Below the pieces are notes generated by a model that worked only from the letters and a program-made list of their open reading frames with translations, did not search any database and was not told the origin of the DNA. DNA of 64,000 nt from Longimicrobiales bacterium (GTDB lineage: Bacteria; Gemmatimonadota; Gemmatimonadetes; Longimicrobiales; Gaopeijiaceae): contig OX638356.1 in assembly GCA_951813395.1 (NCBI GenBank), forward strand, positions 248,001 to 312,000. The letters run 5' to 3'. The translations under genes and the position numbers were made by a program. Positions 55,093-61,363 of the stretch are shown here, in pieces. The first letter of the stretch is position 1; every line of letters starts with the position of its first letter.

Positions 55093-56517
55093 ATGAGCCA
55101 ACCCCGCGACCATTGGAGTTCCAACACAGGCCTCGTGCTTGCCGCCACCGGCAGCGCGATCGGCCTCGGCAACCTCTGGAAGTTCCCCTTCATCACCTGG
55201 GAGAACAACGGGGGAGCGTTCGTCCTCGTCTACCTGATCTGCATCGCGGCGGTCGGCCTGCCGATCATGATGGCCGAGCTGCTGATCGGGCGACGGAGCC
55301 AGAAGAGCGCGGTTGGGGCGCTGAAGGATGCCGTCGCGTCCAAGTGGCCCGCCGGCCGCAAGCTCGGAGCGTTGGCCGGAGGATGGGGCGTGCTGGCGGG
55401 CTTCATCCTGCTCAGCTACTACACGGTCATCGCGGGGTGGTCGCTCTACTACTTCACCAAGTCGCTATCATGGACTTTTGGCGGCTACCCTGTGGGAATG
55501 TTGCCGGGGGACCTCTTCAACGGGCAGGCGCTCAACACCGGCCTGCAGTTGCTGCTGTCGCTCGGGTTCAGCCTCGGGACGATCGCCGTGGTCTATTTCG
55601 GCGTGAGCAAAGGGATCGAGAAGATCGCCCGTATCTTCCTGCCGATCCTGTTCGGCATCCTGCTGCTGATGCTCGTCAGCGCGCTTGGCATGAGCGGTTC
55701 CGCCGAGGCCCTGGGCTTCATCTTCCGCCCCAACTTCAGCGAACTGGGGATGGAGGGGATCCTGGAGGCGCTCGGTCACTCCTTCTTCACGCTTTCGCTC
55801 GGCATGGGGGCCATGATCACCTATGGCTCCTACATCTCCCGCAAACACTCGGTCGTAAAGGCGTCGGGGGCGATCGTGGCGCTGGACACCATCATCGCAC
55901 TGGTCGCCACCGTGATCATGTTCTCGGTCATCTTCTCGGTGGCGGGGATGCGCGAAGAGATCAGCGGGTCCACGGTCGGAATGCTCTTCATCTCGCTGCC
56001 CGAGCTGTTCTACACCGAGGTACCCTTCGGCGTCGTGCTCGGGCCGCTCTTCTACGTGCTCGTCGCCCTGGCCGCGCTGACCTCAACGATCTCCCTGCTG
56101 GAGGTGGTGTCCGCGTACCTGATTGACGAGCGTGGGCTGACTCGGCATAAGGCGACCATCGGTGCCGGAGCTGCGATCTTCGTGTTCACCACCTTTGCGG
56201 TCCTGTCGATTCCCGGACTTCTGGGAGTCTCCGCCGAAGGCCTCCTGTCCACCATGGAGATCTTCGACGGCAAGATCGGCTGGTTCGCGACCGCCGACCA
56301 CTTCGTTTCCAACTGGATGCTCCCGACCGGCGGCTTCTTCATCACGCTGGCGGCGGGGTGGTTCATGACCCGTGAGGCGACGAAGAGCGAGCTGATGGAC
56401 GGCACTGAACCGCGTTGGTTCAAGTACGGCGCGTGGCGCTTCTTCATCCGCTGGGTGGCACCGATCGCCGTTGCGGCGATCATCGTCTTCGTGATCCGCG
56501 GGGTGGACTTCAGTTGA
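55093..56517 (+). CDS. Sodium-dependent NSS-family symporter
   Basis: The 474-residue product has about eleven to twelve membrane helices and the NSS first-helix motif ATGSAIGLGNLWKFPF at residues 16-31, which binds sodium and substrate. Members take up amino acids or related compounds with sodium. The substrate is not determinable here. A GGAAAG tract 6 bases upstream supports the ATG at 55093. Its stop overlaps the TTG start of the dehydratase gene. No large extracellular loop is present, as expected for the bacterial forms. Confidence 0.9.
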   Translation: MSQPRDHWSSNTGLVLAATGSAIGLGNLWKFPFITWENNGGAFVLVYLICIAAVGLPIMMAELLIGRRSQKSAVGALKDAVASKWPAGRKLGALAGGWGVLAGFILLSYYTVIAGWSLYYFTKSLSWTFGGYPVGMLPGDLFNGQALNTGLQLLLSLGFSLGTIAVVYFGVSKGIEKIARIFLPILFGILLLMLVSALGMSGSAEALGFIFRPNFSELGMEGILEALGHSFFTLSLGMGAMITYGSYISRKHSVVKASGAIVALDTIIALVATVIMFSVIFSVAGMREEISGSTVGMLFISLPELFYTEVPFGVVLGPLFYVLVALAALTSTISLLEVVSAYLIDERGLTRHKATIGAGAAIFVFTTFAVLSIPGLLGVSAEGLLSTMEIFDGKIGWFATADHFVSNWMLPTGGFFITLAAGWFMTREATKSELMDGTEPRWFKYGAWRFFIRWVAPIAVAAIIVFVIRGVDFS

Positions 56518-58610
56518 CGGGACAGCAGGTCCGCAAACGCCCGCCGGAGATCTCCTTCGGCGGGCGTGTCCTCTTCCTGGTGGACAATGCCGACCTGATC
56601 CGGCGGCAGCTCCACGAGGGCCTCGACCTCGACCTCACGCCCGAGCTCAAGGCCCGGCTCCGCCACCAGATCAGCACCGACGAGATCACCCCCGCCTACA
56701 TCTGCTTTTTCTACGACGAGACCCTGGGCGAATTCCCGTACCTGGGGCTGGAGGCCGCGAGCGGAAGCGGCGCCACCGAGGCCCCGATCGAACGCGGAAG
56801 CGTCAAGGACGCCGGATTCATCTGCTCGGTCGCCGGCAAGCGCCGCGGCAAGGGATCCAGCCGCGAGCAGAGCCCCTACGCCGAGCTGATGGCCGGGATC
56901 AAGGTCGTCGTCAGCGAGAGCATCGAGCGCATCTACAACGAGAACTGCCAGAACCTGGGCATCCTCACCACGACCGACTTCGGCCTCATCGAGCGCATCC
57001 GCTCCGGCGAGCCGATCCCGCTCACCGAGTTCACGGCCGGCACCGACGAGATCACCCGGCAGATCATCGAGTACGGCGGCCTGTTCGAGTTCAACATGGC
57101 GAGGCTGGGCGGCCAGGTGACGCTCCCGGCACCGCGCGCGCTCGGCGACCCTCCCGCAGGCGACGCGGCCTCGCGCCCCATGACCCTCGGCGAGAAGATC
57201 TTCGCCAGCAAATGGGTCGTTGACGCGGCCTCCGACCAGGTCGGCACCACACACGCCGAACCCGGCGAGGCGGGCTTCTTCCGCGCCGACGTCCGCTTCT
57301 CCCACGAGTACGTGACCCCGATGGCGGCCATCTTCTTCGAGCAGAAGCTGGGCGCCGACGCGAAGGTTCTCGATCCCGACTCGATCCTCTTCTTCCGCGA
57401 CCACCTGACCTTCCTGCACAAGGTGATGAGCCAGGAGCGGATCGAGCAGGGCCTGCTCGAAGTCGCCAACCAGCTCGAGGTCAAGCAGCGCGAGTTCTCG
57501 GAAAAACAGGGCATCCGCCTCTACGGCGAGCAGCAGGGCCACGTCATGGGCTCCGAGGCAATCTGCCACTCCAAGATCCTCGAGGACTACGCCGAGCCGG
57601 GCATGCTCGTGATCGGCACGGATTCCCACACGCCCCACGCGGGTGCGGTCGGCGCCCTGGCCTTCGGGGTCGGCACCACGGCGATCTTCAATTCGTGGAT
57701 CACGAAGGACGTGCGCGCGCGCATTCCGCCGTCGTTCAAGGTGGTGGTGGGCGGCACGCTCCCCGCCAACGCGACCGCCAAGGACCTCATGCTCGAGATC
57801 CTGCGCCACCCCTACGTGCGCGACGGCCACGCGATAGGCCAGATCATCGAGTATGCGGGCCCGGTCGTGGAAGGGCTGTCTGTGGACGAAAGAGCGACCA
57901 TGACCAACATGGCCGCCGAAGTGGGCGCGTTCACGGGTCTGGTTGCGGCCGACGAGAGGACGGTCGAGTTCCTCGTGCGGGAGCGCGGCATGCCCGTGGC
58001 CCGTGCGCGAGCGCTGGTCGAAGGTGTGCACAGCGACCCCGGCGCCGAATACGTCAAGGTCATCGAGATCGACGCCTCGCGCCTGCGCCCCATGGTCGCG
58101 CTGCCCGGCGATCCCGGAAACGGCCTCTACATCGACGAGCTCGCCGACGCCGTCCCCATCGAGATCGCGTACGCCGGATCGTGCACGGCCGGCAAGAAGG
58201 AAGACATGGACATGTACGCGCGTGTCTTCCGCGAGGCCCGCGACCGGTGGGGCCTCGGCGTCCACCCCGGCGTGAAGTGCTACATCCAGTGCGGCTCGAC
58301 CGACGTCCGGGAATACGCGCGCGAGCAGGGGTACCTGGACCTGTTCCACGAGATCGGCGCCGAGTTCATCGAGCCGGGATGCGGCGCGTGCATCGCGGCA
58401 GGGCCGGGCGTCACCCGCTCGGCCGAGCAGGTGTCGGTGTCGTCCCAGAACCGCAACTTCCCGGGCCGCTCGGGACCGGGCCAGCTGTACCTGGTGTCGC
58501 CCTACTCGGTGGCCGCGTCGGCGGTGGCTGGCAGGGTGGCGGCGTGGGAGCCCGGAGCGCGGGTGGAAAGGGTGGAAGCGGGGACGCCGAGGGTGCCGGT
58601 GCTGGCGTAG
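56514..58610 (+). CDS. Fused swivel-first aconitase-family hydro-lyase (LeuD-LeuC order)
   Basis: The 698-residue product (TTG start at 56514 overlapping the symporter stop) joins two normally separate parts in reversed order. An N-terminal swivel domain contains STDEITPAY near residue 54 and KGSSREQSP at 113-121 as in LeuD. It is followed from about residue 220 by the large iron-sulfur domain. The latter has GTDSHTPHAGAVGAL, and cluster cysteines C557 (GSCTAGKK) and C623/C626 (GCGAC). It should hydrate or dehydrate a malate- or citrate-type acid; whether isopropylmalate, homoaconitate or another is open. Confidence 0.85.
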   Translation: MTGQQVRKRPPEISFGGRVLFLVDNADLIRRQLHEGLDLDLTPELKARLRHQISTDEITPAYICFFYDETLGEFPYLGLEAASGSGATEAPIERGSVKDAGFICSVAGKRRGKGSSREQSPYAELMAGIKVVVSESIERIYNENCQNLGILTTTDFGLIERIRSGEPIPLTEFTAGTDEITRQIIEYGGLFEFNMARLGGQVTLPAPRALGDPPAGDAASRPMTLGEKIFASKWVVDAASDQVGTTHAEPGEAGFFRADVRFSHEYVTPMAAIFFEQKLGADAKVLDPDSILFFRDHLTFLHKVMSQERIEQGLLEVANQLEVKQREFSEKQGIRLYGEQQGHVMGSEAICHSKILEDYAEPGMLVIGTDSHTPHAGAVGALAFGVGTTAIFNSWITKDVRARIPPSFKVVVGGTLPANATAKDLMLEILRHPYVRDGHAIGQIIEYAGPVVEGLSVDERATMTNMAAEVGAFTGLVAADERTVEFLVRERGMPVARARALVEGVHSDPGAEYVKVIEIDASRLRPMVALPGDPGNGLYIDELADAVPIEIAYAGSCTAGKKEDMDMYARVFREARDRWGLGVHPGVKCYIQCGSTDVREYAREQGYLDLFHEIGAEFIEPGCGACIAAGPGVTRSAEQVSVSSQNRNFPGRSGPGQLYLVSPYSVAASAVAGRVAAWEPGARVERVEAGTPRVPVLA

Positions 58611-58644: not shown

Positions 58645-58716
58645 TGTCGCCGTGCGGCGACATTCGGCTCTTGGCGTCGTTCGCCGACATTGTTGATTTG
58701 TCGCCGCTCGCCTACA
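58645..58716. promoter_or_regulatory. Three-copy operator array upstream of hipB
   Basis: Three 18-base elements recur with an exact 27-base period: 58645-58662 (TGTCGCCGTGCGGCGACA, a perfect 7+4+7 palindrome), 58672-58689 and 58699-58716 (imperfect). Each is followed by TT, giving CATT at 27-base steps. The last ends 44 bases before the hipB start, so they are good candidates for HipB operators. Confidence 0.6.
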
Positions 58717-58760
58717 TTAGCTGACGCAGGCGAGCATACCCATCGGGCCGAGGATCACCC

Positions 58761-59057
58761 TTGAGAGTCAACACGCCAGTCGACTTCGGCCTCTTGATCC
58801 GCCAGGCGAGAAAAGCGCGGGGCATGACCCAGCAGCAACTGGCGCGGTCGGCCGCGGTCGGCCGCCAGTGGATCGTGGAGATCGAGGCAGGAAAGCGGCG
58901 AGCCGAGCTTGGCAAGGTAATGCAGACCCTGGCCGCGCTGGACCTGACGCTGTCGATACGCGGGGAGGGGATACCAGAGACGCGCAAATCCGAAGTTCCG
59001 ATTGAAGCCATTGATCTCCAGGCAGTTCTGGATGCTCACCGGCGCACATCGCGGTGA
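58761..59057 (+). CDS. hipB: HipB-like antitoxin (XRE helix-turn-helix)
   Basis: The 98-residue product contains an XRE-type DNA-binding domain with RGMTQQQLARSAAVGRQWIVEIEAGKRR around residues 20-47 and a short helical C-terminal tail. Start is TTG at 58761 with a GAGGAT tract nearby. HipB binds operators upstream of its own operon and holds HipA inactive. Its stop overlaps the hipA GTG start (GTGA), and three palindromic operator-like elements precede it. The neighbouring hipA is interrupted, so HipB may be an orphan regulator in this genome. Confidence 0.82.
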   Translation: MRVNTPVDFGLLIRQARKARGMTQQQLARSAAVGRQWIVEIEAGKRRAELGKVMQTLAALDLTLSIRGEGIPETRKSEVPIEAIDLQAVLDAHRRTSR

Positions 59058-60370
59058 ACGAGTACCTGATCGCATTGGCAGGTGGCCGCAAGGTCGGAAA
59101 GATCGGGCGGGACGCCAGAGGGCGGCTCAGCTTCGAATACGACGATGCATGGAGCCTGGAAGACGCGGCGTTTCCGCTTTCCCTCTCGATGCCGCTGACT
59201 GTCCGCGACCACGGTCATGACAGAATCGAACCATGGCTCTGGGGGCTCCTCCCGGACAACGAGAACGTCCTGGCACGCTGGGCTCGGCAGTTCCAGGTGT
59301 CGGCACGTAGTGCTTTCTCACTGCTGAAAGCCACCGGGGAAGATTGTCCGGGCGCCGTGCAATTCGTGAGGCCGGATCGCGTTACCGAACTGCTGGCCTC
59401 CCGGACCGTTGGGGTGTCCGCGTCCGACGCGGTGCCGGAGTCCCGCGAAGTCGCCTGGCTGACCACCGCCGAGGTCGAGGCGCGGCTGCGCACCCTGCGG
59501 CACGACAACAGTGCTTGGCGCCTGGCGGAGGATGTGGGACAATTCAGCCTCGCCGGGGCACAGTCGAAGACTGCCCTTCTGCTGGAGGACGGTCGCTGGG
59601 GCGTTCCTCATGGCGCGACACCTACGACCCACATCCTCAAGCCACCGATTCCCGGCTTCGCAGGACACTGCGAGAACGAGCACCTCTGTCTGCAGCTTGC
59701 GGACGCCCTGGGTATTCCCGCCGCATATTCCCGCGTGAACAGTTTCGGGCAGGAGGCTGCGATCGTCGTCGAGCGGTACGATCGGATCGCCGTGGCGGGA
59801 CGATTGGTACGGTTGCATCAGGAAGACCTCTGCTAGGCCCTGGCGCGGAGCCCATTGAACAAGTACGAGAGCGATGGCGGGCCGGGTTGCCGGGACATCG
59901 CGAGCGCCATTCAGTCCTATAGCACCCGTCCGGGCAAAGATGTTCGCACCTTCGTAGAGGCGATCGCGCTGAACTGGGTCATCGGCGGCACCGACGCTCA
60001 CGCCAGAAACTTTTCACTATTGATCGGCACCGGCGGAAACGCCAGGCTCGCCCCGCTCTACGACCTGGCCAGCGCCATGCCCTATCCCGGCCAATACGCA
60101 CCCAGGCTCAAGCTGGCCATGAAGATCGGCGGTGAGTCGCGGCTCGGATACATCCAGGTGAGGCACTGGGAGCGGTTCGCTGCCCAGGTGGGGCTGCCGC
60201 CGGATGAGGTGCTCGGGATCTGCAAGTCCGTGGCCGCCGAGACGCCTGACCGTTTTGCCGATGTCGTGGCGGCCGCCCGGTCGGAAGGACTGGATCACCC
60301 GATCGTCGAAGGACTCAAGGAGAACATCGCGAGTCACGCGAGCGCATGCCTGGACAGGCTTCAACGGTGA
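59054..60370 (+). pseudogene. hipA: HipA-type serine/threonine kinase toxin interrupted by an amber codon
   Basis: The reading frame encodes a complete HipA if codon 261 (TAG at 59834-59836) is read through; the total would be 438 residues, matching the about 440-residue E. coli HipA. At this point related HipA proteins read HQEDLCQAL, so a CAG-to-TAG change is likely. Upstream residues include the P-loop-like SLAGAQSKTALLL (with the Ser autophosphorylation site) and CENEHLCLQLADAL. Downstream the frame continues KYESDGGPG and GGTDAHARNFSLL with catalytic Asp. Without suppression only the first 260 residues are made; a TTG restart at 59855 is possible. The two parts are otherwise undamaged, so the lesion looks recent. 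Confidence 0.86.
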
Positions 60371-60380
60371 AGTGCCGGAA

Positions 60381-60453
60381 TGGTCGCTGCTGGACTCGAA
60401 CCAGCGACCCCTACGATGTGAACGTAGTGCTCTACCGACTGAGCTAAGCGACC
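60381..60453 (-). tRNA. tRNA-Val (anticodon CAC)
   Basis: The minus strand folds into a full cloverleaf of 73 nt: acceptor stem GGTCGCT/AGCGACC, D arm GCTC-AGTCGGTA-GAGC, anticodon stem CTACG/CGTAG with loop TTCACAT (anticodon CAC), and T arm GCTGG-TTCGAGT-CCAGC. The discriminator base is A and CCA is not encoded. It ends 10 bases past the hipA end on the opposite strand and is 5 bases downstream of tRNA-Glu. Confidence 0.95.
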
Positions 60454-60458
60454 TTGAG

Positions 60459-60531
60459 TACCCCCACGGGGAATCGAACCCCGGTCTCCTGGCTGAGAAC
60501 CAGGTATCCTAGTCCACTAGACGATGGGGGC
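60459..60531 (-). tRNA. tRNA-Glu (anticodon CTC)
   Basis: The minus strand gives a 73-nt cloverleaf: acceptor stem GCCCCCA/TGGGGGT, anticodon stem CCTGG/CCAGG with loop TTCTCAG (anticodon CTC), and T arm CGGGG-TTCGATT-CCCCG. The discriminator is A and CCA is not encoded. It is the first of a tandem tRNA pair with tRNA-Val. Confidence 0.95.
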
Positions 60532-60693: not shown

Positions 60694-61110
60694 TTAGTCC
60701 TCGAACGGATTCAAGAGCGGCACCCCCAGCGCGCGAAAGTCACGGACGTTACGAGTCACCACCGTCAGCCGGTGGACTGCGGCCGTCGCGGCGATCATCG
60801 CATCCTCCAGGATGGTCCGCGACCGACGCCGCTTGACCCGCGCCCATTCCTTAAACGCCGCCGCATCCATGGGCAACACGCCGTAGGAATCGATCACCTG
60901 CTCCAGCCAGGCCTCCAGTTCCTGTGCCTTGACAGGATTCTGTTCACGCACGTTCTCGATTCCGGACTGGATCTCGCCCACGGTGACGGCGGACAGAAAG
61001 AGCTGATCGGACGGTACCCCGGCAATCCATCTCAACACCGACGAGTGCGGCCGCGGTCGGCGGAGCTCCGACACGACGTTGGTGTCCAGCAGGTACACGC
61101 GGCTACTCAA
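60694..61110 (-). CDS. vapC: VapC/FitB-like PIN-domain ribonuclease toxin
   Basis: The 138-residue product has the four PIN acidic positions D9 (YLLDTNVVSE), E46 (TVGEIQSG), D103 (LEDAMIAA) and D124 (NVRDF). Such toxins cut RNA, often tRNA or rRNA. It overlaps the antitoxin gene upstream by 8 bases, the usual type II order with antitoxin first. The length matches the FitB/VapC group. Nothing looks damaged. Confidence 0.9.
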   Translation of the reverse strand: MSSRVYLLDTNVVSELRRPRPHSSVLRWIAGVPSDQLFLSAVTVGEIQSGIENVREQNPVKAQELEAWLEQVIDSYGVLPMDAAAFKEWARVKRRRSRTILEDAMIAATAAVHRLTVVTRNVRDFRALGVPLLNPFED

Positions 61111-61363
61111 GCGGAGGGGGTTCGCGATGGCGGTGTTTTCGACGGGGTGGTGTCAACTCCTCCGTGCGGGCCTCGGGAGCCAACAGGAGTTCCTTGAGGT
61201 CCCGCCGCGCCATTCGCTTCATCCGGCGCCATTCGTCGATCGAAACCAGAACCGCCGCGTCCACCCCGCGCTTTGTGACCAGCTGCGGTCCCTCGGACAC
61301 ACTTGACTCGAGCATTTCGCTGAAGCGCGCCTTGGCCTCCTGCACCTGCCACACTCTGGGCAC
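61103..61363 (-). CDS. vapB: Phd/YefM-family antitoxin
   Basis: The 86-residue product starts with GTG at 61363 and opens VWQVQEAKARFSEMLESSVSEGPQLVTKRGVDAAVLVS, the Phd/YefM DNA-binding fold. A charged C-terminal tail likely wraps the toxin. It overlaps vapC downstream and lies 25 bases from a 24-base palindrome that probably serves as its operator. Pairing Phd/YefM with a PIN toxin is well known. Confidence 0.88.
   Translation of the reverse strand: MPRVWQVQEAKARFSEMLESSVSEGPQLVTKRGVDAAVLVSIDEWRRMKRMARRDLKELLLAPEARTEELTPPRRKHRHREPPPLE

What the first reader, a model, noticed from the sequence alone, without database searches (positions are those of the whole stretch)
59054..60370. hipA is complete except for one in-frame amber codon
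The frame before and after TAG (59834-59836) is continuous and both halves keep conserved HipA features (P-loop-like SLAGAQSK, catalytic GGTDAHARN). The stop falls where HipA proteins usually have Gln (HQEDLCQAL), so one C-to-T change explains it. It may be a fresh loss of toxin activity, a split toxin restarted at TTG 59855, or a suppressible stop. HipB and its operators are intact.
Basis: partly seen in the sequence, partly recalled or inferred. Interest (0 to 1): 0.6.

Follow-up and report, generated by a model that had tools for sequence, protein, structure and literature searches.

The report
Freshly broken HipA toxin gene
An uncultured environmental bacterium carries a bacterial self-poisoning gene (hipA) that looks normal except for one premature stop codon, and its sister species show the same gene being lost again and again, so this is most likely an ordinary, very recent gene death rather than a new kind of toxin.

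Summary
In hipA (59054-60370) one in-frame TAG (59834-59836) interrupts an otherwise open 438-codon frame. All 105 other HipA loci read have Gln there (81 CAG, 24 CAA). At 66 columns conserved in at least 95% of homologues, the window copy departs only at the stop. Both halves still show purifying selection (dN/dS about 0.2), so the lesion is young.

A split toxin is not supported: no relative shares the stop, six relatives have one intact gene, and the stop cuts the kinase core, with the P-loop on one side and the catalytic Asp residues on the other. Suppression is not supported: all 47 tRNA genes were typed and none reads UAG, release factor 1 is intact, and 61 of 169 genes end in TAG.

New context: hipBA is an old locus between an aconitase-family gene and tRNA-Val/Glu in this Gemmatimonadota genus. 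It is intact in six relatives and reduced to different remnants in nine. The window copy is the mildest stage of a repeated loss. Two other genes in the 1.66 Mb surveyed also carry a lone TAG at a Gln position (a multicopper oxidase and a Mu-type transposase). A consensus error cannot be excluded without reads.

The parts
56415..58610 (+). aconitase-family gene (acn) upstream of hipBA; conserved anchor of the locus
   Evidence: ORF; Pfam Aconitase 3e-92; next to hipB in relatives
58645..58664 (.). operator-like site 1 (TGTCGCCGTGCGGCGACATT)
   Evidence: conserved palindrome upstream of hipB in most orthologues
58672..58691 (.). operator-like site 2 (TGGCGTCGTTCGCCGACATT)
58699..58718 (.). operator-like site 3 (TGTCGCCGCTCGCCTACATT)
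58761..59057 (+). hipB antitoxin/repressor gene, intact, 98 aa, TTG start
   Evidence: NCBIfam couple_hipB 74.4 bits over cut-off 71.65; 91% identical in the nearest relative
59054..60370 (+). hipA gene, one frame interrupted by a single TAG; GTG start overlaps the hipB stop by 4 bases (GTGA)
59054..59836 (+). upstream hipA fragment, 260 aa: N-terminal subdomain and P-loop
   Evidence: Couple_hipA 9e-26 and HipA_C positions 1-84
59546..59569 (+). P-loop SLAGAQSK (residues 165-172; S165 aligns with E. coli HipA S150)
   Evidence: alignment; conserved columns
59834..59836 (+). in-frame TAG at an otherwise invariant Gln position (residue 261)
59855..60370 (+). downstream hipA fragment if restarted at TTG (171 aa); GGAG only 4 bases upstream of the TTG
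   Evidence: HipA_C positions 88-211; spacing read
59984..60010 (+). catalytic motif GGTDAHARN (D314 aligns with E. coli D309)
   Evidence: conserved columns D314, H316, N319
60062..60064 (+). metal-binding Asp codon D337 (aligns with E. coli D332)
   Evidence: conserved
60381..60453 (-). tRNA-Val (CAC), downstream anchor of the locus
   Evidence: same place in relatives
60458..60531 (-). tRNA-Glu (CTC), downstream anchor

Best explanation
This is a vertically inherited chromosomal hipBA toxin-antitoxin operon of a Gemmatimonadota genus, whose toxin gene was killed very recently by one nonsense change at a conserved Gln codon. Release factor 1 ends translation after 260 residues. The upstream product keeps the N-terminal subdomain and the ATP P-loop but has no catalytic Asp (D314), Asn (N319) or metal-binding Asp (D337). 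Any restarted downstream product has those residues but no P-loop. Neither should be a kinase on its own, so HipB is left without an active toxin. Shown: the stop, the conserved Gln, intact selection on both halves, the intact hipB and operator-like sites, and repeated loss of the same locus in the genus. Inferred: that the stop is real DNA, that the product is inactive, and that the locus will go on to decay as in the relatives.
For: One stop in 438 codons and no frameshift. Gln at the column in 105/105 other loci and 87/87 aligned homologues; no other departure at 66 near-invariant columns. Window vs nearest orthologue dN/dS 0.21 overall, 0.23 before and 0.19 after the stop; polarised changes on the window branch 24 nonsynonymous: 40 synonymous, against 28: 31 on the sister branch. 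Nearest orthologue (87% aa, same neighbours) is intact. Same locus decayed in different ways in G001, G002, G006, G007, G010, G011 and G021, with shorter scars in G015 and G020; at least four changes of state on an acn tree. No tRNA reading UAG. Release factor 1 intact. TAG ends 61 of 169 genes with orthologues and swaps with TGA/TAA in G009. The other clean TAG lesions found are in genes that look dispensable.
Against: No reads and no second strain were available, so a C-to-T consensus error would look the same. A very young lesion leaves no independent trace of relaxed selection. All three clean nonsense codons found in 1.66 Mb are TAG where relatives have Gln, which a simple equal-rates model makes unlikely (about 0.001 to 0.007), although C-to-T and G-to-A dominate the spectrum on this branch (36 of 64 changes).
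Confidence: 0.76

Rival explanations
1. Consensus or sequencing error: the organism has an intact hipA and the assembly reports T for C at 59834.
For: The gene is otherwise perfect at conserved positions and under selection. No reads can be checked. Two more lone TAGs at Gln positions occur in the same assembly.
Against: Single contig, 97.9% complete. About 280 genes with orthologues show no clean nonsense codon in housekeeping genes, whereas random error should hit any gene. No C5-cytosine methyltransferase was found, which argues against a Dcm-type methylation artefact or deamination hotspot. The sister species are losing the same gene.
Confidence: 0.15
2. Split toxin: two polypeptides, 59054-59836 and one restarted at TTG 59855, assemble into a working kinase.
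For: Both halves are open and conserved. A TTG lies 18 bases after the stop. G001 keeps an open C-terminal half starting at about residue 267.
Against: No other locus has the stop. G001 has lost hipB and the N-terminal half, so there is no pair. The cut lies inside the kinase core, between P-loop and catalytic loop, unlike HipS/HipT, where HipT lacks only about the first 100 residues (PMC6581861). The TTG has only GGAG at 4 bases upstream. A young stop leaves little time for a selected pair.
Confidence: 0.03
3. Suppressed or recoded amber: UAG is read as Gln at this and a few other places, giving some full-length HipA.
For: Three lone TAGs, all at Gln positions, in 1.66 Mb. Both hipA halves remain under selection.
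Against: 47 of 47 tRNA genes typed, none with anticodon CUA; the odd one is a probable tRNA-Sec with UCA. Release factor 1 intact. TAG terminates 36% of genes with orthologues, and two stretches recognised from memory as the ends of tuf genes.
Confidence: 0.04

Closest known systems
HipBA type II toxin-antitoxin system of E. coli K-12
   Same: hipB-hipA order, HTH antitoxin, HipA N-terminal and C-terminal domains, P-loop Ser, catalytic Asp and metal Asp aligned; upstream operator-like palindromes
   Different: the toxin frame is cut by TAG at the position of E. coli Gln257; target and activity untested
HipBST tripartite system (split hipA homologues; PMC6581861, PMC8262856)
   Same: HipA-like sequence lies in more than one ORF
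   Different: HipT lacks only about 100 N-terminal residues and keeps the whole kinase core; here the cut is at residue 261 within the core and is not conserved in any relative
Nonsense-inactivated toxin genes of chromosomal toxin-antitoxin loci (pseudogenes)
   Same: antitoxin intact, toxin truncated, locus decaying in relatives
   Different: nothing beyond the very early stage and the clear series of stages in one genus

Membership tests
HipBA toxin-antitoxin system | HipA N-terminal domain plus HipA_C kinase domain | tested here: met
   PF13657 and PF07804 over cut-off on the read-through frame
HipBA toxin-antitoxin system | HTH HipB antitoxin encoded just upstream, overlapping | tested here: met
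   TIGR03070 over cut-off; GTGA overlap
HipBA toxin-antitoxin system | P-loop Ser, catalytic Asp, metal-binding Asp in one polypeptide | tested here: not met
   residues are present in the frame but on opposite sides of the TAG; a member by descent, not a working toxin as it stands
HipBA toxin-antitoxin system | kinase activity on an aminoacyl-tRNA synthetase | not testable with these tools
   needs an assay
HipBST split toxin | separate HipS of about 100 aa and HipT with a complete kinase core | tested here: not met
   cut at residue 261, fragments of 260 and 171-177 aa; definition from PMC6581861
HipBST split toxin | split conserved among relatives | tested here: not met
   0 of 105 other loci have a stop there
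Amber suppression or UAG reassignment | tRNA with CUA anticodon | tested here: not met
   47 tRNAs, none
Amber suppression or UAG reassignment | TAG avoided as terminator or release factor 1 missing | tested here: not met
   61 of 169 terminators are TAG; prfA 478 bits
Recent pseudogene | disabling change in an otherwise conserved frame, intact in relatives | tested here: met
Recent pseudogene | lesion present in the organism's DNA (reads, other strains) | not testable with these tools
   no reads; one genome per species held

The most novel reading that the evidence does not exclude
UAG at Gln positions is read through at a low, useful level in this lineage, so that hipA, a multicopper oxidase and a transposase are dampened rather than dead.
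Probability: 0.04. Interest if true: 0.6.

Novelty: new member of a known kind. Interest (0 to 1): 0.2.

Why it matters
On its own it is a routine toxin-gene death. In context it is the first step of a visible series at one chromosomal position: intact hipBA, one amber codon, internal deletions, hipB alone, bare scars, all in one uncultured genus. That makes the question of what keeps or discards a chromosomal HipA testable by comparison, and it warns against annotating this locus as either a working toxin or a split toxin.

Tried and rejected
Dcm-type hotspot: with C the site would read CCAGG, the classical 5-methylcytosine hotspot (own knowledge), but no PF00145 methyltransferase was found in the genome, and the nearest relative has TGTCAGG. 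Shared or conserved stop: rejected. Suppressor tRNA and UAG reassignment: rejected. Plasmid copies: only distant 68-70% partial matches in the rows listed. A DNA pattern for the site in viral contigs found nothing. Survey for other nonsense codons: a first pass was swamped by antisense and start-site artefacts and was refined by codon-position filtering and coding-potential scans checked by Pfam. Most candidates were ordinary gene boundaries; a few were uninformative or unchecked. A search with PF07510 was a mistaken accession and is not used.

Full report
Observation. The frame from GTG 59054 to TGA 60368-60370 holds one internal stop, TAG at 59834-59836, residue 261 of 438. The 260-residue upstream part matches the HipA N-terminal domain and HipA_C positions 1-84. 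The downstream part matches HipA_C positions 88-211. Together they give one 180-bit HipA_C match. hipB overlaps hipA by GTGA and passes the couple_hipB cut-off. The genome search finds the same frame with the same single TAG.

Position of the stop. In 105 of 105 other HipA loci the stop column is Gln, 81 CAG and 24 CAA (some relatives were fetched from two collections and count twice). In an alignment of 88 sequences, 66 columns are at least 95% conserved and the window sequence departs at only one, the stop. E. coli HipA aligned by phmmer has Gln at the same place, counted here as residue 257. Ser150, Asp309 and Asp332 of E. coli align with S165, D314 and D337 here. The P-loop therefore lies before the stop, and the catalytic and metal-binding Asp residues after it.

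Age. Against the nearest orthologue (87% amino-acid identity, same neighbours, intact), dN/dS is 0.21 overall, 0.23 before and 0.19 after the stop. Polarised by outgroups, the window branch has 24 nonsynonymous and 40 synonymous changes and the sister branch 28 and 31. A gene dead for a sizeable part of that branch should show a clear excess of nonsynonymous changes. As a rough inference from these counts, less than about a fifth of the branch can have been neutral.

Genus context. The window lies in a single 4.09 Mb contig of a genus whose relatives are named Gemmatimonadota. hipBA sits between an aconitase-family gene and tRNA-Val/tRNA-Glu. It is intact in G005, G009, G012, G013, G016 and G022. 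It is decayed in different ways elsewhere: G007 keeps hipB but has a hipA deletion and a frameshift; G011, G006, G010 and G002 have different internal or terminal deletions; G001 keeps only the C-terminal 172 codons behind unrelated sequence; G021 keeps an intact hipB and no hipA. Short scars remain in G015 (hipA 3' end) and G020 (operator and fragments), while G003, G017 and G008 show no clear remnant. On an acn tree with many open forks, at least four changes of state are needed. The differing breakpoints suggest more.

Split toxin? HipBST systems carry HipS of about 100 residues and HipT with a whole kinase core (PMC6581861; PMC8262856). Here the cut is through the core, is shared by no relative, and the G001 C-terminal half has no partner or antitoxin. 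Restart at TTG 59855 has only GGAG four bases upstream. I consider a working split very unlikely.

Suppression? All 47 tRNA genes found were typed. The one ARAGORN could not name has anticodon TCA by eye and is most likely tRNA-Sec. No CUA anticodon was found. Release factor 1 scores above its curated cut-off without internal stops. TAG ends 61 of 169 genes with orthologues in G009, and 25 of those pair with TGA or TAA there.

Error? Reads are not available. As an indirect test I surveyed 1.66 Mb of the genome. Against G009 (183 genes) and G021 (99 genes), clean mid-gene nonsense codons in true frames were found in hipA, in a multicopper oxidase (G000:C1:421036; same-genus orthologues at 81-96% identity all read CAG) and in a Mu-type transposase (173645). 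One weaker candidate, a TAG at a Tyr position at 1003877, was not followed. Coding-potential scans recovered all three clean lesions; of the other candidates most resolved into ordinary gene boundaries, one into a probable selenocysteine TGA in an OsmC-like gene, and a few were uninformative. All three TAGs are in genes that look dispensable, which favours real decay over random error. That all three replace Gln is a small oddity. Simple models give 0.001 (transition weight 1) to 0.007 (weight 3), and the strong C-to-T/G-to-A bias seen would raise that. With n = 3, chosen after the fact, I do not build on it.

Mechanism. HipB with its three conserved operator-like palindromes should still bind DNA. 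Translation of hipA, coupled by GTGA, should end at residue 260 by release factor 1. Lacking the catalytic residues, the product should not be a kinase, so the operon is expected to have no toxin. These three statements are inference.

Verdict. A recent, single-codon inactivation of an old chromosomal HipA, ordinary in kind; confidence 0.76, the remainder mostly consensus error.

Noticed in passing
L188:7728-9431 (-), G000:C1:419728-421431; TAG at 421036: Multicopper oxidase gene with a lone in-frame TAG where 11 same-genus orthologues (81-96% identical) read CAG; the genome holds two uninterrupted paralogues at 52-56%.
   Followed up: partly
L179:4985-6307 (+), G000:C1:173645: Mu-type transposase frame with a lone TAG at a Gln position; multi-copy intact relatives in G021.
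   Followed up: partly
L220:8572-9264 (-), G000:C1:600842; tRNA at L152:90-178: OsmC-like gene with an in-frame TGA inside the domain, at what looks like the conserved Cys, in a genome with a probable tRNA-Sec gene: likely a selenoprotein.
   Followed up: partly
L173:789-1082 (G021): Intact hipB, with its upstream sites, kept without any hipA: a solitary antitoxin/repressor.
   Followed up: no
window 60694-61363 (-): Second toxin-antitoxin pair (PIN toxin, Phd/YefM antitoxin) just beyond the tRNA genes; present near the same site in several relatives, and G016 has what looks like another Phd-like antitoxin between acn and hipB: a toxin-antitoxin hotspot.
   Followed up: partly
hipA orthologues L034 and L035: The N-terminal halves are nearly identical (dS 0.06) while the C-terminal halves differ (dS 0.27), suggesting recombination within hipA between species.
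   Followed up: no
L003 (G000:C1:1230560-1231285): A second, distant, uninterrupted HipA_C gene in the same genome.
   Followed up: no
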